DNA of 64,000 nt from Hyphomicrobiales bacterium (GTDB lineage: Bacteria > Pseudomonadota > Alphaproteobacteria > Rhizobiales > Rhizobiaceae): NCBI GenBank assembly GCA_900466875.1, contig UBNQ01000006.1, forward strand, positions 62,001 through 126,000, given 5' to 3'. Positions 18,077 through 25,844 of this stretch are shown here, piece after piece. The translations under genes and the position numbers were made by a program. Each line of letters begins with the position of its first letter. Position 1 is the first letter of the stretch. The notes beneath the pieces were generated by a model, which saw only the letters and a program-made list of their open reading frames with translations, searched no databases and had not been told where the DNA came from.

Positions 18077-18694
18077 ATGTCCTCCATCCTTCTGGTCACC
18101 TCGAGCCCACGCGGCGCAGACTCGCTCTCCACCAAGATCGCCAGCGAGTTTGTCGACAAGCTGAAGGCGCAAAATTCGGCCGCAACCGTCACTCATCGCG
18201 ACCTGGGCAAAAACCCGATCGCCCACCTCGACACGGTCACGACCTCGGCCATCAAGAAGCAGCCTGCCGACCGTACCGCAGACGAGGCTGCTGCTGTTGT
18301 CGAGTCCGACAAGCTGACCGCCGAACTGCTCGATGCCGACACGGTCGTGCTGGCAACAGGCCTGATCAACTTCAACATCTACTCCTCGCTGAAGAGCTGG
18401 ATCGACAACGTTGCACGCGCCGGCCTGACCTTCAGCTACACGGCAGAAGGTCCGCAGGGTCTTGCCACCGGCAAGAAGGTCTATGTCGTGCTTTCCGCCG
18501 CCGGCATCTATTCCGAAGGGCCGGCCATGGCGATGAACCATGCCGTTCCCTACCTCAAGACCGTTCTCGGCTTCATGGGCATGACCGATATTGAAGTGAT
18601 CTATGTCGAAGGCACGGCTTTCGGTCCGGAAGCTTTCGAGAAGGCAATCGCGTCTGCTCAGGAACGGACCGAGCAGCTGGCGCTCGCCGCCTGA
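18077..18694 (+). CDS. azoR: FMN-dependent NADH-azoreductase
   Basis: A 205-residue flavodoxin-like enzyme. The start ILLVTSSPRGADSLS is the FMN phosphate-binding loop, FNIYSSLKSWIDNVARAGLTF is the conserved dimer and flavin segment, and GKKVYVVLSAAGIYSEGP follows. Family members use NADH and FMN to reduce quinones and azo compounds in the cytosol. ATG 18077 follows AAGGAATTGG. It is divergent from the LysR gene. Confidence 0.93.
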   Translation: MSSILLVTSSPRGADSLSTKIASEFVDKLKAQNSAATVTHRDLGKNPIAHLDTVTTSAIKKQPADRTADEAAAVVESDKLTAELLDADTVVLATGLINFNIYSSLKSWIDNVARAGLTFSYTAEGPQGLATGKKVYVVLSAAGIYSEGPAMAMNHAVPYLKTVLGFMGMTDIEVIYVEGTAFGPEAFEKAIASAQERTEQLALAA

Positions 18695-18709
18695 TCGACT
18701 TTCGGAGTT

Positions 18710-19966
18710 TCAGAACTTTCCATAACGGCCGTGAACCCTGTCACGGCCGTTATTTTTTGCCTGGTAGAGCCGCTCATCCGCCCGGCTGAGAACGAGATCG
18801 AGCGTGCGGCCATCCTCGGGAGCGGTCGCAACGCCGACCGAAACCGTCAAGGGCGTGCCATCGGGGCGCGTTATATTGGCTGCAATATCCTGGCGAAGGC
18901 GTTCCGCCACTTCCAGAGCCTTGTCGTGATCGGTATCAGACATCAGGAGCACGAACTCCTCGCCGCCGAACCGGGACAGGTGATCGCTCGCCCGCGCGCT
19001 TCTGTTCAGACAGGCCGCCAGTTCTCTCAGCACGGTATCACCACGCTGATGCCCGAAACGGTCATTGACGTCCTTGAAATGATCGGCATCGACGATGACC
19101 ATGCTGATCGACTGGCGCATTGCGAGGCTCTTTCGCACCAGTTCCGGCCCGTCCATCTCATAACGGCCCCTGTCGAACACGCCGGTCAGGCCATCGACAC
19201 CCGCCTTTGCCAGCAGCGCCTGATATCGCTCGCGGAATGTGAGATCATGGAAAATGTCCTTGATCTGCCGGGAGGACACCGACCACTGATCATTCTGATC
19301 GATCTTCAGATAGACGGCAAAGAGGCCCGAGTAGATGAGCACGGCAGACAGCTTTGCGTACCAGCCGCCGAAAAAGACCGGTAGCGGCACACCAAGCAGA
19401 ATGTGAAGTACCGAGAAGAACGCAACCTGGTCAAAGGTCAGGATGATGGCACCGCTGATTGCGAACCGCACGACGATATTTTCGATGAAACGTCCAAGCC
19501 GTTCGTAAAGCAGGATGATCGCAATCGCATCGATGTAAAGTATCGTCGTGCCCCAGACCATGAGCCAGCCCATCTCATCGAGAAAGCCCATATCCGCCAC
19601 GCGGCCGCCAGGCAGTGACACGGCTGCGTGCAGTTGCAGGATCTGGGCGATGCCGACGGTGAGGAGATTGCCGAGAAACAGGCCGTAGATAGGCTGACGC
19701 ACCGTGGCGGCATCCTCCTTGATGTACAGCATCAGGATCATCATCAGCTTGCCGGCGAAAAAGATGGAGGATCCGGGCGACACGGTTCCGAACGGCAACT
19801 GGACATAAAAGACCGCCGCCAGATAGGTTTCCATAAAATGCATGACGCCGAGTGCGGCCAGGAACACTCCCAGCCCGAGCGGACGCCGGAAATGCAGGAA
19901 CGCCGTCATGACGGAGAAATAGACGACCGCTTCAACCAGAAACAGGCCGAGATTAAGCCATTGCAT
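18710..19966 (-). CDS. membrane-bound diguanylate cyclase (GGDEF)
   Basis: A 418-residue protein with about seven N-terminal membrane helices over residues 5-220, then a GGDEF domain from about residue 245. The active site reads GGEEF at 334-338. The allosteric inhibition site RxxD is intact as RASD at 325-328, five residues before it, so c-di-GMP feedback is expected. It should make c-di-GMP from two GTP. ATG 19966 has AGGAG five bases upstream, better than the ATG at 19984. The upstream neighbour on the same strand is the Amt-GGDEF-EAL gene, 85 bases away. What the membrane part senses is unknown. Confidence 0.92.
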   Translation of the reverse strand: MQWLNLGLFLVEAVVYFSVMTAFLHFRRPLGLGVFLAALGVMHFMETYLAAVFYVQLPFGTVSPGSSIFFAGKLMMILMLYIKEDAATVRQPIYGLFLGNLLTVGIAQILQLHAAVSLPGGRVADMGFLDEMGWLMVWGTTILYIDAIAIILLYERLGRFIENIVVRFAISGAIILTFDQVAFFSVLHILLGVPLPVFFGGWYAKLSAVLIYSGLFAVYLKIDQNDQWSVSSRQIKDIFHDLTFRERYQALLAKAGVDGLTGVFDRGRYEMDGPELVRKSLAMRQSISMVIVDADHFKDVNDRFGHQRGDTVLRELAACLNRSARASDHLSRFGGEEFVLLMSDTDHDKALEVAERLRQDIAANITRPDGTPLTVSVGVATAPEDGRTLDLVLSRADERLYQAKNNGRDRVHGRYGKF

Positions 19967-20051
19967 GGGCGCTCCTTGCGCCATTGAGAATAGACTCTTT
20001 TAGGATCGCCTCAGTTAAGTTTTCCTCAAGTCCCGTACGATCTTGTGGAAG

Positions 20052-23048
20052 TTAGCCAACGAGACAGCCGTTTGGATTTCCCTGAAAATCGATGTCGCGA
20101 ATTTCCGGCGACCTGCGCGGCATGTGTTTCAGCTGAACAGCGATCGCAGGATCGATCTGCCGAAGGATATCGGACATTTTTGCGGGACGACCGAGAAGAT
20201 ATCCCTGCAGTTCATGGCAGCCTGCATGCGCGAGGAAAAGCGCTTCCTCTGGAGTCTCCACGCCTTCGGCAACGACCTTCATGCCGAGTCCCGTGCCGAG
20301 ATCAATGATGGTCCGCACGATCATGCGAGCGTTTTCAGCAAGCCCGAGATTGGCAACGAAGCTGCGGTCTATCTTGAGGGTGTCGAACGGATAGCGGCTG
20401 AGGTAGCTGAGCGAGGAATAGCCGGTGCCGAAATCGTCGAGCGCGATGGTAAAGCCCATCCGTTTCAGCTCGCCGAGGATGTGAACCGCACGCTTGTCAT
20501 CGTCGATCAACACGCTCTCGGTGATCTCCAGTTCGATGCGGCGTGGATCGGCGCCGGTTCGCTGCAACAGGCCGGCGAGGTTGGCGACAAAATCTCCATG
20601 GCGGAACTGAAGCGGGCTGACGTTGACACTGATGTGCCCCTCGATGAGGTCGAGCTGCCTCACCGCCTCGACCAACACCCACTCTCCAAGCTGGATGATC
20701 TTGCCTGACGCTTCGGCCACCGGAATGAAATCCGCCGGACTGACCATGCCTTTCGTCGGATGGCTCCAGCGCAACAAGGCCTCGTAGCCGCTGATCGAGG
20801 TGTCGATGACGTTGACGCGGGGCTGAAGATAGAGCTCGAACTGCCCCTGCTGCAACGCGATTTCCAGATCACCTTCAAGCGCACGGCGCTTTTCGATCAG
20901 ATCGTTCATGCCGCAACGGAACAGGCGGAAGGCGTTTCGACCGGAACTCTTGGCGTGATGAAGCGCGATGTCGGCGCAACCGACCAACGCATCCTTATCG
21001 GCGCTGTGCTGAGGGTATCGCGCAGCGCCGATGCTGAGCGTGACATTGACCTGCTCGCCGCGGCGGATATCGATCGGCGCAGCCATGGCCACGAGCACAC
21101 GCCTGCTGAATGCTTCCAGATCCTGTTCCGTCGATACGCCGCCTAGAATGGCAGCAAATTCATCGCCTCCGAGTCGCGCAACAATGTCCTGGGGACCAAC
21201 TGCCGCCATCAATCTGGCAGCAACTTCCCGGATCACCGTATCGCCGGCCTGGTGTCCGTGGATGTCGTTGATATCCTTGAAGCGATCGAGATCGATCATC
21301 GCAACGCCGAAGGCATGGCCGTCGCCAGTATGTGCCATGATCTCGTTAAGGCTTTCGGTGAACAGGACACGATTGGGCAGACCGGTCAGCGGATCGTGCA
21401 GCGCGAGATAACGAATGCGCTTCTCTGCGTCTTTTCTCTCCCTCAGATCGACGAAGCAGCCGACACGCGCTTTCTCACCGTGGAAAGTGATATCGCGGCC
21501 GCGCGCGGCGACCGGCACGAGAACGCCATCCGGCAAGGCGATCGAAATCTCATGGCGGGCATCATCGTTGAGCTTGATGATCTCGGAAACGCGGATCGCC
21601 TCGCCGTCCCGCAGGAAATCGAAGATGGAGCGGCCAATCAGTTCCTGAAGCGGGCGCCCAACGAGTTTGGCAAGTTCCTCGTTGCCATCGACCACGATGC
21701 CGTTGCGGTGGATCATGATCGCCTCGAATGTCGCCTTGGCCAAAGCAGCTACGCGCTCGGCTTCGTCATACTGGCGCGACCATTCGGCAATCACCTCTTC
21801 ACGATCAGCCTCGACGTCCTCCGCCTTGCGGATGATCATGATGCGATCGAGAATCCGGAAGAGGATATAGCTTGCGCCGAACGCCCAATAGAAGTTGATT
21901 CCGACGCCGACGACCTGGACCCATAGCTGCTCCAGCCGCCCGCCAGCAGGCAGATGCGCAAGCGGGGCAAGGAGCGGCAACAACAGGGCACCGGCCGAGC
22001 CGGCAAAGGCATGGATGCCTATCGTGCTCATCGGATCATCGATCTTAAGCACGCGCAAGACGAAAAGGTTGCCGCCAATCGCAACTGCGCCGCCGATGCC
22101 ACCGAGGATCAACGCACCGGTGACATCGATAACGCCAGCGCCAGCAGTTGCGGTGGCCAGACCACCCAACATGCCGCAGATCAGCCGCTCCGGCACAACC
22201 TGGCGATCCATTCGCAGCGCGATCAGATAACCGATACAGGCTCCCATCCCACCCGAGAGAAGAGAATTGACAATGACGGCGGGCATATTCGCCCCGGTGA
22301 CGATTGCAATACCACCATTCAGCCCCGCCCACCCGACGAAGAGAAGCAAAGCTCCCGCAGCGGAGAAAATCACGTTGCGGCCACTCGCCTGTCTCTGCAC
22401 GCCGATCACCATGCAGGCGGCGAGCGTGATCCATCCCGCCGTCGCATGGATCGAAACGCCGCCGGCAAGATCGACGAAATCAAGGTTTGCCAGGAATGCG
22501 GTGACATTGCCGAAAAGCTGGTCTCCGAGAACCCAGTGCAGAAAAACGGGATAGACGAGGCCCGCCATAAACAGGCAGGCGGGGACGAAAGCCTTCGGCG
22601 TCATCCGCGCGGCCGCGGCGCCGGAAAAGATGGTGACCGCAAGGCCGCACAGCATCAGTTGGACAATGATCATCGCCGTCTGGCCGGAAGCCAGATTGTC
22701 CAACAAGGAGAGCCCCGGCCCGGTTCCGAACGGAAACGCATGCGACTGGCCGAAAGCCAGGGTCGCACCCAAGACAGCGAAAGCAATAACGGCGAGAACG
22801 AATCCGAAGATATTTATTCTGGCAACCAGAAGCGCGTTTCCGGGCCGCCCGGCACCGGCCGCACGGAAAAGCAGGCCGACCTGCATGATCATGACGCAGG
22901 CCGCGATGACCATCATCCAAACATCATCGACCGCCGACGAGATCGTGTGACCGCCGGACAAAGGGATGTCTGCATAGGCAAAAGGGACCGATGAAACCAT
23001 CGCCACAAAAAACCATACAACAAGCGTCAAAAGCCGCTGTGATCTCAT
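20052..23048 (-). CDS. ammonium transporter-like (Amt) domain fused to PAS-GGDEF-EAL
   Basis: A 998-residue protein. Residues 1-27 look like a cleavable signal. Residues 35-405 form an Amt/Mep/Rh domain of about eleven helices. It keeps the twin pore histidines as H201 (in GGVSIHATAGW) and H346 (in GIHAFAGSAG) and the D193 that lies eight residues before the first. The two pore-gating phenylalanines of E. coli AmtB appear as leucine (about L133 and L243). A charged linker (405-435) leads to a PAS domain (about 435-545), a GGDEF domain with intact GGDEF at 627-631 but no inhibition-site arginine (G618 in place of R), and an EAL domain with EAL at 756-758, ITES, DDFGTG and AEGVE. It could both make and destroy c-di-GMP. 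An ammonium-sensing role is inferred from known Amt fusions to signalling domains. Confidence 0.93.
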   Translation of the reverse strand: MRSQRLLTLVVWFFVAMVSSVPFAYADIPLSGGHTISSAVDDVWMMVIAACVMIMQVGLLFRAAGAGRPGNALLVARINIFGFVLAVIAFAVLGATLAFGQSHAFPFGTGPGLSLLDNLASGQTAMIIVQLMLCGLAVTIFSGAAAARMTPKAFVPACLFMAGLVYPVFLHWVLGDQLFGNVTAFLANLDFVDLAGGVSIHATAGWITLAACMVIGVQRQASGRNVIFSAAGALLLFVGWAGLNGGIAIVTGANMPAVIVNSLLSGGMGACIGYLIALRMDRQVVPERLICGMLGGLATATAGAGVIDVTGALILGGIGGAVAIGGNLFVLRVLKIDDPMSTIGIHAFAGSAGALLLPLLAPLAHLPAGGRLEQLWVQVVGVGINFYWAFGASYILFRILDRIMIIRKAEDVEADREEVIAEWSRQYDEAERVAALAKATFEAIMIHRNGIVVDGNEELAKLVGRPLQELIGRSIFDFLRDGEAIRVSEIIKLNDDARHEISIALPDGVLVPVAARGRDITFHGEKARVGCFVDLRERKDAEKRIRYLALHDPLTGLPNRVLFTESLNEIMAHTGDGHAFGVAMIDLDRFKDINDIHGHQAGDTVIREVAARLMAAVGPQDIVARLGGDEFAAILGGVSTEQDLEAFSRRVLVAMAAPIDIRRGEQVNVTLSIGAARYPQHSADKDALVGCADIALHHAKSSGRNAFRLFRCGMNDLIEKRRALEGDLEIALQQGQFELYLQPRVNVIDTSISGYEALLRWSHPTKGMVSPADFIPVAEASGKIIQLGEWVLVEAVRQLDLIEGHISVNVSPLQFRHGDFVANLAGLLQRTGADPRRIELEITESVLIDDDKRAVHILGELKRMGFTIALDDFGTGYSSLSYLSRYPFDTLKIDRSFVANLGLAENARMIVRTIIDLGTGLGMKVVAEGVETPEEALFLAHAGCHELQGYLLGRPAKMSDILRQIDPAIAVQLKHMPRRSPEIRDIDFQGNPNGCLVG

Positions 23049-23163
23049 CGAAAAAGCCGCTGGAAAATTGATAAATGCCCAGCAAACCTAGATGGCAGGT
23101 TTTAATATTGAGTGAGTATCGCAACCGCCGCGATCACCAATGATTGAACGGGGTTTGATCCGA

Positions 23164-23484
23164 TCAGGCCGAGCGGGACTTTTCACCGCCTGAAAAGAGC
23201 GAAGCGCCGTTCTGGTCAATGATTTGTTCCGCCTTGCGGACGGTGAAGGTCACCGCATCATCCAAGGAGGAGAACATGTCGGCGCGAATGATGTGACGGA
23301 CGAGCGTTTCGCCATTCACTTCCTTTTCGATGCGGCCCGCGAGGCGGTACTGGCCACCTTCGGCGATCGGCGCCGGATAAATCAGGCAATCGTTGTAAGG
23401 AACAGGCTCAGCCCCCTTGGATCCTTGGGCAGACTTGTCCTTGCCCGAGAAGGCGGAGAGAAGAGAAGAAAAAAACGATGCCAT
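23164..23484 (-). CDS. HlyU family transcriptional regulator-like protein
   Basis: A 106-residue protein matching the HlyU family (PF10115): a serine-rich start, then IYPAPIAEGGQYRLAGRIEK, the central IRADMFSSLDDAV and the closing RKAEQIIDQNG. Alphaproteobacterial members are annotated as HlyU regulators, but the fold differs from the Vibrio winged-helix HlyU and DNA binding is not established. It lies 80 bases downstream of ilvA on the same strand. Confidence 0.85.
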   Translation of the reverse strand: MASFFSSLLSAFSGKDKSAQGSKGAEPVPYNDCLIYPAPIAEGGQYRLAGRIEKEVNGETLVRHIIRADMFSSLDDAVTFTVRKAEQIIDQNGASLFSGGEKSRSA

Positions 23485-23564
23485 GACTTTTGCCTACCAC
23501 ATTGCTCCCGGCGCCAAAACGCCCCAAACGGCTGTAACCGTTTCAGGCCGGGAGCGCCAGCCCA

Positions 23565-24812
23565 TCAGATAATCAGGTTGGCGAGGATTTCGTTTTCGGT
23601 GATGTCCTCGTAACCGAGGCCCGCCGCTTCGAAGCGTTCATAAAGACCGGCGAAATTTTCCGGCGCCCTGGTTTCGATGCCGATCAGGATCGAACCGAAA
23701 TTGCGGGCCGATTTCTTCAGATATTCGAAGCGCGCGATGTCGTCATCCGGGCCCAAGAGGTTGAGGAAATCGCGCAAAGCCCCGGGGCGCTGGGGCAAGC
23801 GCAGGATGAAGTATTTCTTCAGGCCCGCGTAACGCATGGCCCTTTCCTTCACATCCGGCAGGCGCTCGAAATCGAAATTGCCGCCGGAGACGACGCATAC
23901 GATGGTCTTTCCGGCAATCTTTTCGGGGGCCAGAAGCGACAGCGCGGTGATCGAAAGACCGCCTGCCGGTTCGAGCACGACGCCCTCTACATTCAGCATG
24001 TCGGTCATCGTGACGCAGATGGCGTTTTCGGGGATGAGCAGGACCTGCTCGGACGAAAACCCTTTCAGCGCCTCGAAATTGAGATCTCCGATACGCGCGA
24101 CCGCGGCACCATCGACAAAATTGTCGACCTTCGGAAGGGTGACCGGCGATCCGGCTTCGAGGCTTTTCTTCAGGCTCGGGGCGCCGGTTGGCTCGGTGAA
24201 GAGAAAACCGTCGGCGGGCACCACGTCCTTGAGATACCCTGTGACGCCCGAGGCAAGGCCGCCGCCGCCGACCGGCAGGATGACCATGTCGGGACGCACG
24301 CCCTGCGGCAGCTGCGCTGCGATCTCGGCAGCCACGGTCGCCTGTCCTTCGATGATGTCGAGACTGTCGAAGGGAGGCACCATCATGCCGCCGATCTCCT
24401 CAACATGGGCGCGGGCGGCCGCATAGCACTGGTCGAAAATGTCGCCGATCAGCTTGATGGTGATGAATTCGCCGCCGAATATGCGGGTCTTGTCGATCTT
24501 CTGCTGCGGCGTCGTAACCGGCATGAAGACCACGCCTGGCACTTCGAAATGCCGGCAGACGAAAGCGAAGCCCTGCGCGTGATTGCCGGCGGAGGCGCAG
24601 ACGAAGGTCTTGCCCTTCGCGCCGGTGGCGATCTCCTTGCGCAGAAAATTGAAGGCACCGCGGATCTTGTAGGAACGGACCGGCGACAGGTCCTCGCGCT
24701 TCAACCAGATATCTGCGCCATAACGGCGGCTCAGATGCTCGTTCAACTGGAGCGGCGTCTCCGGAAAGATCGTCCGCATCGCCGCCCTGGCATCGTCCAC
24801 ACCTGTTTTCAT
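23565..24812 (-). CDS. ilvA: threonine ammonia-lyase (threonine dehydratase)
   Basis: A 415-residue PLP enzyme that converts threonine to 2-oxobutanoate, the first step toward isoleucine. The PLP lysine is in SPVRSYKIRGAFNF, the substrate loop is SAGNHAQG, and the phosphate loop is GGGGLASG. A C-terminal regulatory ACT-like domain starts near residue 330 (KKYFILRLPQRPGALRDFLN), so isoleucine feedback is expected. ATG 24812 was chosen; a GTG one codon upstream is possible. The window also carries ilvD. Confidence 0.93.
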   Translation of the reverse strand: MKTGVDDARAAMRTIFPETPLQLNEHLSRRYGADIWLKREDLSPVRSYKIRGAFNFLRKEIATGAKGKTFVCASAGNHAQGFAFVCRHFEVPGVVFMPVTTPQQKIDKTRIFGGEFITIKLIGDIFDQCYAAARAHVEEIGGMMVPPFDSLDIIEGQATVAAEIAAQLPQGVRPDMVILPVGGGGLASGVTGYLKDVVPADGFLFTEPTGAPSLKKSLEAGSPVTLPKVDNFVDGAAVARIGDLNFEALKGFSSEQVLLIPENAICVTMTDMLNVEGVVLEPAGGLSITALSLLAPEKIAGKTIVCVVSGGNFDFERLPDVKERAMRYAGLKKYFILRLPQRPGALRDFLNLLGPDDDIARFEYLKKSARNFGSILIGIETRAPENFAGLYERFEAAGLGYEDITENEILANLII

Positions 24813-24944
24813 CACTTAAACCATCCACGGATCATCAAGATTTCCCCCGCTATGCCACAGCAGGCGGAGGAAGACCAAGTCCGTTTTGTCGCCTTTCCGT
24901 TCCCCTCTGACGTGAGCGCTCCGGTTGGGACGGAGAAACGGCCG

Positions 24945-25844
24945 TCAATTATGGAAGACCTTGCCGAGGAACGCCGTTGCCTGGGGCAGACCGGTGCGCC
25001 AATAGGTCCAGTCGTGACCGCCTTCCCGAGCCATGAAGCGATGCGGGATTTCGAGTTTCTGCAGCTTCAGTGTCAGTTCTGCATTGCCGACGAAGAAGTC
25101 GTCATAGGAGCCGCAGTCGATGTAGAGTTCGGTCTTCTTGATGTTTTCCGCCGGCGTCTTGTCGACCAGATCGAGGACGCTGTTGGCGTAATAGGGCTGA
25201 TTGAGGCGGTCGCGGCCCGTCAGTCCGACACCCCAGGCCTTGCCGTAACGGCGATCATAGCCCGGCTGGTCCATGTCGACGATCTGCTGGTCGGTGCGGA
25301 AGGCGGCGCTCAAGGCTGCGGCACCGGCGAACAGGTCGGGATATTTCAAGGAGAAGGCGATCGCCGCATAACCGCCCATCGACAGGCCGAGAACGCCGCG
25401 GGATTTCTTGCCGGGAACGACAGGAAACGTCTTTTCCACATGCGGAACGAATTCCTTGACGAACATGTCCTGCCACAGGTACCCGCCGTCCGCATCGTTC
25501 ATGTAATAGGTGTTGAACTTGTTGTCCTCGTCGCGGCGGCCTTCCGGCGTCACGGCGATGAAGGGCGGCACCTCGCCGCTTTCGATCAGCCTGTCGAAGA
25601 CGAGATTGGCATTGCCGAAGCGGTACCAGTCCTGGTTCTGGCCATCGCCGCCGCCATGCATCAGGTAGATCACCGGATAACGCCGCTCGTCGCGGCCGTA
25701 ACCGGGCGGCAGGTAAAGCGTGAATTCGACGTTTTTCCCGAGGATACGGCTGGCCATGAACTGGCCCTCCTTCACCGTGCCTTCGGCATGGGCCGCCGAG
25801 CCGGCGAAAATCACCAGCAGAAGGAAGAATAGTTTCCTGACCAT
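24945..25844 (-). CDS. secreted esterase family protein (alpha/beta hydrolase)
   Basis: A 299-residue product with a Sec signal peptide (VRKLFFLLLVIFAGSAAHAEG). The hydrolase fold shows PVIYLMHGGGDGQNQDW as the oxyanion strand, GLSMGGY as nucleophile elbow (Ser about 158), and a late histidine in GGHDWTYW. It belongs to the esterase D/feruloyl esterase/antigen 85-like group (PF00756) acting outside the cytosol; the substrate is unknown. ATG 25844 follows GAGGAG. Confidence 0.9.
   Translation of the reverse strand: MVRKLFFLLLVIFAGSAAHAEGTVKEGQFMASRILGKNVEFTLYLPPGYGRDERRYPVIYLMHGGGDGQNQDWYRFGNANLVFDRLIESGEVPPFIAVTPEGRRDEDNKFNTYYMNDADGGYLWQDMFVKEFVPHVEKTFPVVPGKKSRGVLGLSMGGYAAIAFSLKYPDLFAGAAALSAAFRTDQQIVDMDQPGYDRRYGKAWGVGLTGRDRLNQPYYANSVLDLVDKTPAENIKKTELYIDCGSYDDFFVGNAELTLKLQKLEIPHRFMAREGGHDWTYWRTGLPQATAFLGKVFHN

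What the first reader, a model, noticed from the sequence alone, without database searches (positions are those of the whole stretch)
20052..23048. Amt-PAS-GGDEF-EAL fusion: a candidate ammonium sensor that both makes and degrades c-di-GMP
One 998-residue frame joins a complete-looking ammonium-transporter domain (twin pore histidines H201 and H346, D193) to PAS, an intact GGDEF and an intact EAL domain. The AmtB pore-gate phenylalanines appear as leucines and the GGDEF inhibition-site arginine is glycine, so transport and feedback may both be altered. Amt fusions to histidine kinases and to GGDEF domains are known in a few bacteria as ammonium sensors; a form carrying PAS, GGDEF and EAL together is rarely discussed. 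This would tie nitrogen state directly to biofilm/motility control in a rhizobial relative.
Basis: partly seen in the sequence, partly recalled or inferred. Interest (0 to 1): 0.82.

Follow-up and report, generated by a model that had tools for sequence, protein, structure and literature searches.

The report
Ammonium sensor that went deaf
This rhizobium-like bacterium carries a membrane protein that joins an ammonium-transporter fold to a PAS domain and two enzyme domains predicted to make and break the signal c-di-GMP; unlike most of its wider family it has lost the residues for recognising ammonium and most of the linker between sensor and enzyme, so it has likely stopped sensing ammonium and would take its cue mainly from the PAS domain.

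Summary
A 998-aa Amt-PAS-GGDEF-EAL protein lies on the MINUS strand at 20052-23048, with H201, H346 and D193 in register with AmtB H168, H318 and D160. The architecture is not rare: 28 of 57 genomes of the genus match its Amt-PAS part, and 26 of 28 named loci share the same upstream genes. I compared 81 Amt-bearing rows (window's own included). In 64 of 66 main-group rows Amt keeps the S1 filter, Phe gate, twin His and the two acids that bind NH4+ in the proven sensor Ks-Amt5; two transporters checked lack those acids. The window's protein belongs to one well-supported clade of 15 that lost both acids, Trp148 and both gate Phe (15 of 15) and Ser219 (14 of 15); in 14 of 15 the connector is cut from 89 to 27-30 residues. 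In that clade Amt evolves about 3.4 times faster relative to EAL, PAS about 3 times slower, and pore positions have lost their extra conservation. EAL catalytic residues stay intact. Elsewhere the same locus holds forms without Amt. The family is probably an ammonium sensor; this member most likely is not, and looks like a membrane-anchored, PAS-governed c-di-GMP enzyme. Nothing was measured at the bench.

The parts
20052..23048 (-). Amt-PAS-GGDEF-EAL gene, 998 aa, ATG start
21804..22928 (-). Amt domain (residues 41-415): 11 predicted membrane helices; filter positions L133/L174/I247, gate positions L133/L243, twin His H201/H346, D193; Ks-Amt5 acid positions A63/G82
21741..21824 (-). shortened connector (residues 409-436, 28 aa; 89 aa in 65 of 66 main-group rows); pLDDT below 50 at 411-439
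21435..21740 (-). PAS domain (residues 437-538), slow-evolving in this clade
20931..21413 (-). GGDEF domain (residues 546-706), GGDEF motif 627-631 intact, I-site R replaced by G618
20175..20879 (-). EAL domain (residues 724-958), catalytic residues E756 N809 E841 D871 D872 K892 E928 Q948 present (list recalled)
18710..19984 (-). VUPS-GGDEF gene, 424 aa, 67 bp downstream on the same strand; adjacent in 22 of 28 named loci
23164..23484 (-). HlyU-family gene (PF10115) upstream; same place in 26 of 28 named loci
23565..24815 (-). threonine dehydratase-like gene (ilvA) upstream; in 26 of 28 named loci, sometimes about 2 kb from hlyU

Best explanation
The gene at 20052-23048 (minus strand) encodes an Amt-PAS-GGDEF-EAL protein whose Amt domain has lost the ammonium filter, the Phe gate, the two acids of the Ks-Amt5-type cation site and most of the connector that the main group of its relatives keeps, so it likely no longer senses ammonium and its predicted c-di-GMP turnover would be governed mainly by the PAS domain. 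Shown here: the residues, the connector deletion, their coincidence in one clade, the faster evolution of Amt and slower evolution of PAS in that clade, intact GGDEF and EAL signature residues in this protein, and the conserved downstream VUPS-GGDEF gene. Inferred: the ancestor was an ammonium sensor of the Ks-Amt5 / Sd-Amt1 type; NH4+ entered through the S1 filter, bound the E/D site, and moved a tail plus HAMP-like connector that set PAS-GGDEF-EAL output. In the window's lineage the input and the connector went, the Amt fold stayed as a membrane (probably trimeric) scaffold, and PAS became the dominant input. The adjacent VUPS-GGDEF cyclase, whose I-site looks intact, would supply c-di-GMP that the EAL domain removes, which would make the fusion mainly a phosphodiesterase.
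For: (1) Residues: the F107/W148/F215/S219 equivalents, twin His and both acids are complete in 64 of 66 main-group rows. In the clade F107, W148 and F215 equivalents are lost in 15 of 15 and S219 in 14 of 15. (2) Ks-Amt5 binds NH4+ through Q24, E31, N47, D50, T51, T109, T112 (PMC5764959 section 8). The register was read from the printed HMMER alignment. E31 is E in 66 of 66 main-group and 0 of 15 clade rows; D50 is D in 65 of 66 and 0 of 15. The two transporters checked (E. coli AmtB, own AmtB) lack both acids; two Amt-MCP and one Amt-HK fusions have both. (3) Connector: 89 aa in 65 of 66 main-group rows; 27-30 aa in 14 of 15 clade rows, 85 aa in P0052. HAMP is matched, under its cut-off, by 24 of 31 main-group members (best 21.1 bits against 25) and by none of the five clade members shown singly. 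(4) The 15 rows form one clade, support 100/97, on a PAS-GGDEF-EAL tree of 79 rows. (5) Amt/EAL length ratio is 2.9-5.6 in the 8 clades holding these rows (one also holds a main-group row) and 0.3-1.6 in the 20 without; PAS/EAL is 0.39-0.58 against 0.96-6.2 (nested clades). Core 12 against 20 hand-picked near main-group rows: Amt 3.4-fold (95% 2.4-4.9), PAS 0.32 (0.17-0.56), GGDEF 1.08 (0.69-1.70). (6) Median dN/dS for Amt 0.22 (5 clade genes) against 0.040 (16 hand-picked main-group genes); PAS 0.035 against 0.163. (7) At 27 pore positions (list recalled) the main group is more conserved than random Amt sets (0 of 300 reach it), the clade is not (48% do). (8) Forms without Amt keep PAS-GGDEF-EAL at the same locus.
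Against: H201 and D193 are kept in 15 of 15 rows, H346 in 12 of 15, and W240 and N244 in all 12 core rows: something may still hold the pore. Ks-Amt5 itself has no HAMP and couples its kinase directly (PMC5764959 passages), so a short connector alone does not exclude signalling. AmtB F107A and S219A stay active and F215L was not among the variants told of (PMC10433425 passages). Amt dN/dS of 0.22 is well below 1, so the domain is not free to decay, and it was not deleted here as in other lineages. The clade repeats a particular set (L133 12/15, R174 11/15, L243 13/15, F247 12/15), which could be a new site. The slow PAS could reflect coupling to GGDEF rather than sensing; with another alignment and Amt-less rows added the gap is narrower: one clade of 4 clade rows has PAS/EAL 0.76, the lowest main-group clade 0.88, the Amt-less clade 0.88. 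No ligand is known for this PAS; the best PDB sequence match has E 0.015. dS is near saturation in some pairs. Only 5 clade members had DNA. No activity was measured.
Confidence: 0.67

Rival explanations
1. The Amt pore has been retuned rather than deafened: the rebuilt vestibule, with an arginine at the W148 position in most of the clade and Phe at S219, binds something else (NH3, an amine or an anion), or the arginine sits in the NH4+ place as a tethered cation and holds the sensor in one state.
For: Recurrent L-R-L-F set; D193 and H201 invariant in 15 of 15; dN/dS 0.22 below 1; 11 predicted membrane helices kept; the domain is retained although other lineages do without it.
Against: Pore positions are no better conserved than the rest of Amt in this clade; the window's own copy has L174 and I247, not R and F; three members lost H318 to Tyr; the connector is shortened and predicted with pLDDT below 50, so a retuned pore would have no obvious way to report.
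Confidence: 0.18
2. It is still an ammonium sensor: the twin histidines and D193 suffice for NH4+/NH3 sensing and the short connector still transmits.
For: Twin His and D160 kept in the window's copy. AmtB F107A and S219A keep activity, and N. europaea Rh50 transports although only the Phe of the S1 residues is kept (PMC10433425 passages). Ks-Amt5 signals without HAMP (PMC5764959 passages).
Against: All four S1/gate residues are changed at once; AmtB F215A, H, E, S and W variants are dead (PMC10433425 passages); both Ks-Amt5 site acids and most of the connector are lost; H346 is Tyr in 3 of 15 kin; Amt constraint is relaxed.
Confidence: 0.11
3. It is mainly an ammonium transporter with enzyme domains attached.
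For: PF00909 membership and twin His.
Against: Filter and gate lost; R62 at the AmtB F31 position; Ks-Amt5, which keeps the filter, already does not transport efficiently (PMC5764959 section 8); the genome holds a separate AmtB with full filter next to a P-II gene.
Confidence: 0.03

Closest known systems
Sd-Amt1 of Shewanella denitrificans (PDB 8qj3, 8qj4, 8qpf; titled 'Receptor Sd-Amt1', OFF- and ON-state)
   Different: Matched stretches are Amt and GGDEF only, no EAL; keeps filter, gate and the E/D acids in the printed alignments, which the window's copy has lost. No paper on it was found in the held library
Ks-Amt5 of Candidatus Kuenenia stuttgartiensis (PDB 6eu6; PMC5764959)
   Different: Output is a histidine kinase without HAMP; filter, gate and the NH4+ site with E31 and D50 present; the window's copy has A63 and G82 at the acid positions
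Main-group rhizobial Amt-PAS-GGDEF-EAL proteins (for example Neorhizobium, Pseudorhizobium, Ciceribacter)
   Same: Related by tree and, in 26 of 28 named loci, same upstream genes; same four domains
   Different: 89-aa connector (65 of 66), complete filter, gate and acids (64 of 66), strongly conserved Amt
MorA, MucR and PA0575 GGDEF-EAL proteins of Pseudomonas (4rnh, 5m1t, 5m3c)
   Same: Closest solved GGDEF-EAL or EAL parts, 42-46% identity
   Different: Other input domains (recalled)

Membership tests
Amt/Mep/Rh fold (PF00909) | Profile match over the cut-off and 11-helix fold | tested here: met
Ammonium transporter / channel (AmtB type) | S1 filter F107, W148, S219 | tested here: not met
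   L133, L174, I247
Ammonium transporter / channel (AmtB type) | Phe gate F107, F215 | tested here: not met
   L133, L243
Ammonium transporter / channel (AmtB type) | Twin His H168, H318 | tested here: met
   H201, H346; Tyr at 346 in 3 of 15 clade rows
Amt-type ammonium receptor (Ks-Amt5 / Sd-Amt1) | Amt domain fused to a signalling output | tested here: met
Amt-type ammonium receptor (Ks-Amt5 / Sd-Amt1) | Acidic pair E31, D50 of the membrane NH4+ site | tested here: not met
   A63, G82; 0 of 15 clade rows have either
Amt-type ammonium receptor (Ks-Amt5 / Sd-Amt1) | NH4+-dependent change of output activity | not testable with these tools
   needs biochemistry
Rhizobial Amt-PAS-GGDEF-EAL orthologue group | Groups by output-domain tree and sits at the same locus | tested here: met
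Rhizobial Amt-PAS-GGDEF-EAL orthologue group | 89-aa tail plus HAMP-like connector of the main group | tested here: not met
   28 aa
HAMP domain (PF00672) in the main group's connector | Match over curated cut-off | tested here: inconclusive
   24 of 31 members match at E up to 0.1, best 4e-4 and 21.1 bits against 25; helix-break-helix in the model of P0017, pLDDT about 54-72
GGDEF diguanylate cyclase | GGDEF signature | tested here: met
   GGDEF at 627-631 of the window's protein; complete in 14 of 15 clade rows, one has A at the first G
GGDEF diguanylate cyclase | Cyclase activity | not testable with these tools
   needs biochemistry
EAL phosphodiesterase | Catalytic residues E, N, E, DD, K, E, Q (list recalled) | tested here: met
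   E756 N809 E841 D871 D872 K892 E928 Q948, 15 of 15 clade rows
EAL phosphodiesterase | c-di-GMP hydrolysis | not testable with these tools
   needs biochemistry

The most novel reading that the evidence does not exclude
A natural switch of input caught in sequence: in one rhizobial clade an ammonium-receptor Amt domain lost its cation-site acids, filter, gate and connector together while its PAS neighbour came under tighter selection, and the emptied Amt pore, rebuilt around an arginine in most members, became a receptor for a different ligand or a self-liganded ('tethered cation') setter of c-di-GMP output: to my knowledge the first Amt-fold receptor that does not read ammonium.
Probability: 0.15. 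Interest if true: 0.82.

Novelty: new variant of a known kind. Interest (0 to 1): 0.6.

Why it matters
Only two Amt-type receptors (Ks-Amt5, Sd-Amt1) turned up among the solved structures matched here. This locus offers a natural experiment: at one chromosomal position related genes come in three states, sensor intact, sensor eroded in place, and no sensor. The intact state carries a five-residue signature (Q, E, N, D, T) absent from the two transporters checked, and the eroded state has lost its two acids, the filter, the gate and, in 14 of 15, most of the connector. Comparing the three states would test directly whether the Ks-Amt5 acid site and the connector are what makes an Amt protein a receptor, and how a c-di-GMP enzyme survives the loss of its sensor. 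It also warns against reading 'Amt-GGDEF-EAL' annotations as ammonium sensors without checking these residues.

Tried and rejected
Rejected: (a) alignment artefact as the cause of the leucines: MAFFT with E. coli AmtB and HMMER alignments to 8qj3, 6eu6 and 2nuu agree, and the model matches AmtB folds. (b) Several independent filter losses behind the 15 rows: one clade explains them. L019 shows a separate partial erosion (Y/W/F/A, D50 to G, connector 81 aa), and L009/L028 (one gene) has F215 to L and S219 to A with the rest intact. (c) A broken gene: the frame is open and median dN/dS is below 1 in every domain. (d) An Amt remnant in another frame in the Amt-less rows: tblastn with four Amt queries at E 0.01 found none in L010, L044 (the same gene), L016 and L018; G074 and G060 were not tested for it. 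(e) A known PAS ligand: no convincing solved relative; the fold search covered Amt and EAL mainly, so PAS was barely tested. (f) A sigma-70-like promoter: none found at 18600-25000, mean 2.4 in shuffles; uninformative for a rhizobium.

Results and limits that weaken the reading: PAS in the Amt-less clade is only mildly slow (PAS/EAL 0.88) and the lowest main-group clade has 0.88 too, so 'loss of Amt tightens PAS' is not a general rule. The rate clades are nested and not independent. The comparison sets (16 genes; 20 of 66 rows) were picked by hand as near relatives. The 66 main-group rows include one gene counted twice (L014 and L089, same genome) and several near-identical pairs, and 5 of the 66 are cut before the end of EAL. 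The protein search scored only the 7994 candidates sharing most words, so the 81 rows are not a census, and many come from unnamed sources. P0012, P0054, P0055 and P0056 were left out of the counts (a short form without EAL, and other outputs); I took the other P rows missing from the 85-row set as duplicates of loci (dropped by the script's identity rule). Paper listings were capped: 20 of 60, 15 of 44, 15 of 46, 15 of 109; two searches found 0, one search found 3, all unrelated.
Full report

HOW COMMON IT IS. A search with the Amt part returned 56 proteins including the window's own (only 7994 candidates were scored). A genome-contig scan gave 46 loci, of which 28 (L022-L049) hold the fusion or, in L044, its Amt-less form. 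In the window's genus, 33 of 57 held genomes match the Amt-PAS query: 5 in one piece (the window's short-connector type, own genome included), 23 in two pieces with an insert between them (long-connector type), and 5 only from residue 357 or later, with open frames of 657-662 residues (no Amt). Of the 28 named loci, ilvA and hlyU lie upstream in 26, and VUPS-GGDEF lies directly downstream in 22 (near but separated in L046; absent in L034, L035, L038, L045, L049). So the architecture is ordinary among rhizobia, and it reaches Roseibium, Polymorphum and Fulvimarina.

TWO KINDS OF AMT DOMAIN. I aligned 81 distinct Amt-bearing rows (window included) and 4 Amt-less rows. Of 66 main-group rows, 64 carry F107, W148, F215, S219, H168, H318 and also E and D at the positions of Ks-Amt5 E31 and D50 (register to Ks-Amt5 read from the alignment). 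In Ks-Amt5 those acids, with Q24, N47, T51, T109 and T112, bind two NH4+ ions inside the membrane, which may trigger signalling (PMC5764959, section 8 read in full). E. coli AmtB and the AmtB of this genome have neither acid, whereas two Amt-chemoreceptor fusions and one Amt-kinase fusion have both. The printed alignments show both acids in Sd-Amt1 as well. The pair is thus a usable mark of the receptor type in the rows tested. The window's protein and 14 relatives have neither acid, no Trp148, and no Phe at either gate position; Ser219 remains in 1 of 15. The window's own set is L133, L174, L243, I247, A63, G82; 11 of 15 have Arg at 174 and 12 of 15 Phe at 247. D193 and H201 remain in all 15; H346 is Tyr in 3.

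THE CONNECTOR. Between Amt and PAS the main group has 89 residues in 65 of 66 rows (81 in the other): a stretch resembling the AmtB tail (GLNxAEHxTRLG; the likeness to AmtB's tail is recalled) followed by a HAMP-like segment. 24 of 31 main-group members match Pfam HAMP, all under the cut-off, and the model of P0017 shows helix, break, helix there at modest confidence. In the window's clade 14 of 15 rows have 27-30 residues; P0052 keeps 85 but its tail motif is gone. Cytoplasmic loop 5, which the Ks-Amt5 authors find plausible as the relay to the C-terminal linker (PMC5764959 passages), is 26 residues in 64 of 66 main-group rows but 16 to 32 in the clade, and 16 in the window. Against weight on the connector: Ks-Amt5 itself lacks HAMP and couples directly.

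ONE EVENT, AND A SHIFT OF CONSTRAINT. On a tree of PAS-GGDEF-EAL alone (79 rows) the 15 rows form one clade (100/97), sister to P0011 plus the Amt-less Aliirhizobium terrae gene. With branch lengths fitted per domain on a fixed topology, Amt/EAL is 2.9-5.6 in the 8 clades holding these rows (one of them with a main-group row too) and 0.3-1.6 in the 20 without; PAS/EAL is 0.39-0.58 against 0.96-6.2 (clades are nested). With the Amt-less rows added and another alignment, clades made only of these rows have PAS/EAL 0.38-0.76 and main-group clades 0.88-6.1. A column bootstrap comparing the 12 core rows with 20 hand-picked near main-group rows gives Amt 3.4-fold faster (95% 2.4-4.9), PAS 0.32-fold (0.17-0.56), GGDEF 1.08 (0.69-1.70). 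Median dN/dS is 0.22 in the clade against 0.040 for Amt and 0.035 against 0.163 for PAS (5 and 16 genes; dS partly saturated). At 27 pore positions (list recalled from AmtB literature) the main group is far more conserved than elsewhere in Amt (0.919 against 0.713; 0 of 300 random sets reach it), the 12 core rows are not (0.730 against 0.725; 48% of sets do). This is what loss of a pore-based function with retention of a membrane scaffold would give. It is less like retuning, which should keep the pore conserved in a new form.

NO AMT ELSEWHERE. A. terrae (L044/L010/L104), G013, G032, G074 and G060 hold a form of 647-657 aa from its first start codon (G060: open segment of 659) at the same locus: hydrophobic N-terminus, one likely membrane segment, then PAS-GGDEF-EAL. 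Since these rows nest among Amt-bearing ones I infer deletion; the tree places A. terrae apart from L016/L018, so at least twice. VUPS-GGDEF is absent beside the form in G013, G032, G074 and G060 and split over two frames in A. terrae. PAS in the Amt-less clade is only mildly slow (0.88).

OUTPUT. The EAL residues needed for catalysis (list recalled) are present in all 15 clade rows; the GGDEF motif is complete in 14, the window's included. The I-site arginine is absent across most of the family. The downstream VUPS-GGDEF protein reads RASD-x5-GGEEF, so its I-site looks intact (sequence; motif recalled). No terminator-like site lies in the 67-bp gap between the two genes. I infer a cyclase-phosphodiesterase pair with the fusion as the main phosphodiesterase; this is untested.

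MECHANISM PROPOSED. Ancestor (inferred): NH4+ passes the S1 filter, fills the E/D site, moves loop 5 and the tail, and a HAMP-like connector passes the change to PAS-GGDEF-EAL. Window lineage (inferred from the losses shown): input and connector are gone, Amt stays as an anchor, PAS governs. The genome keeps a separate AmtB with complete filter beside a P-II gene for uptake.

LITERATURE SEEN. PMC5764959: section 8 in full and passages. PMC10433425: passages only. PMC9756655 (c-di-GMP domains in five alphaproteobacterial orders): passages; 'ammoni' and 'Amt' do not occur in its main text. PMC12487129: passages, irrelevant. Searches for Amt-GGDEF fusions, Sd-Amt1 and rhizobial Amt with c-di-GMP listed no paper whose title or abstract start is on this fusion; four of the listings were capped (see Tried and rejected). 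The Sd-Amt1 work is known to me here only from PDB titles.

Noticed in passing
window 18710-19984 (-): VUPS-GGDEF cyclase gene kept directly beside the fusion in 22 of 28 named loci; a search for 'VUPS' with 'GGDEF' found no paper in the held library.
   Followed up: partly
P0054, P0056: Amt domains fused to chemoreceptor (MCP) output that carry the Ks-Amt5 acid signature: candidate ammonium chemoreceptors.
   Followed up: partly
L044 9773-11084 (A. terrae): The VUPS-GGDEF gene is split over two frames beside the Amt-less form; natural break or assembly error not decided.
   Followed up: no
L019 115-3315 (G031): A separate, partial erosion of the Amt sensor: F107 to Y, S219 to A, D50 to G, connector 81 aa and degenerate.
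   Followed up: partly
window 23565-24815 (-): A threonine dehydratase-like gene, an enzyme type that releases ammonium (recalled), lies upstream of the fusion in 26 of 28 named loci; whether this is more than conserved gene order is unknown.
   Followed up: no
window 18722-18753: A 13-pair terminator-like hairpin on the plus strand just after the flavodoxin-fold (acpD-like) gene; it lies inside the last codons of the convergent VUPS-GGDEF gene.
   Followed up: no
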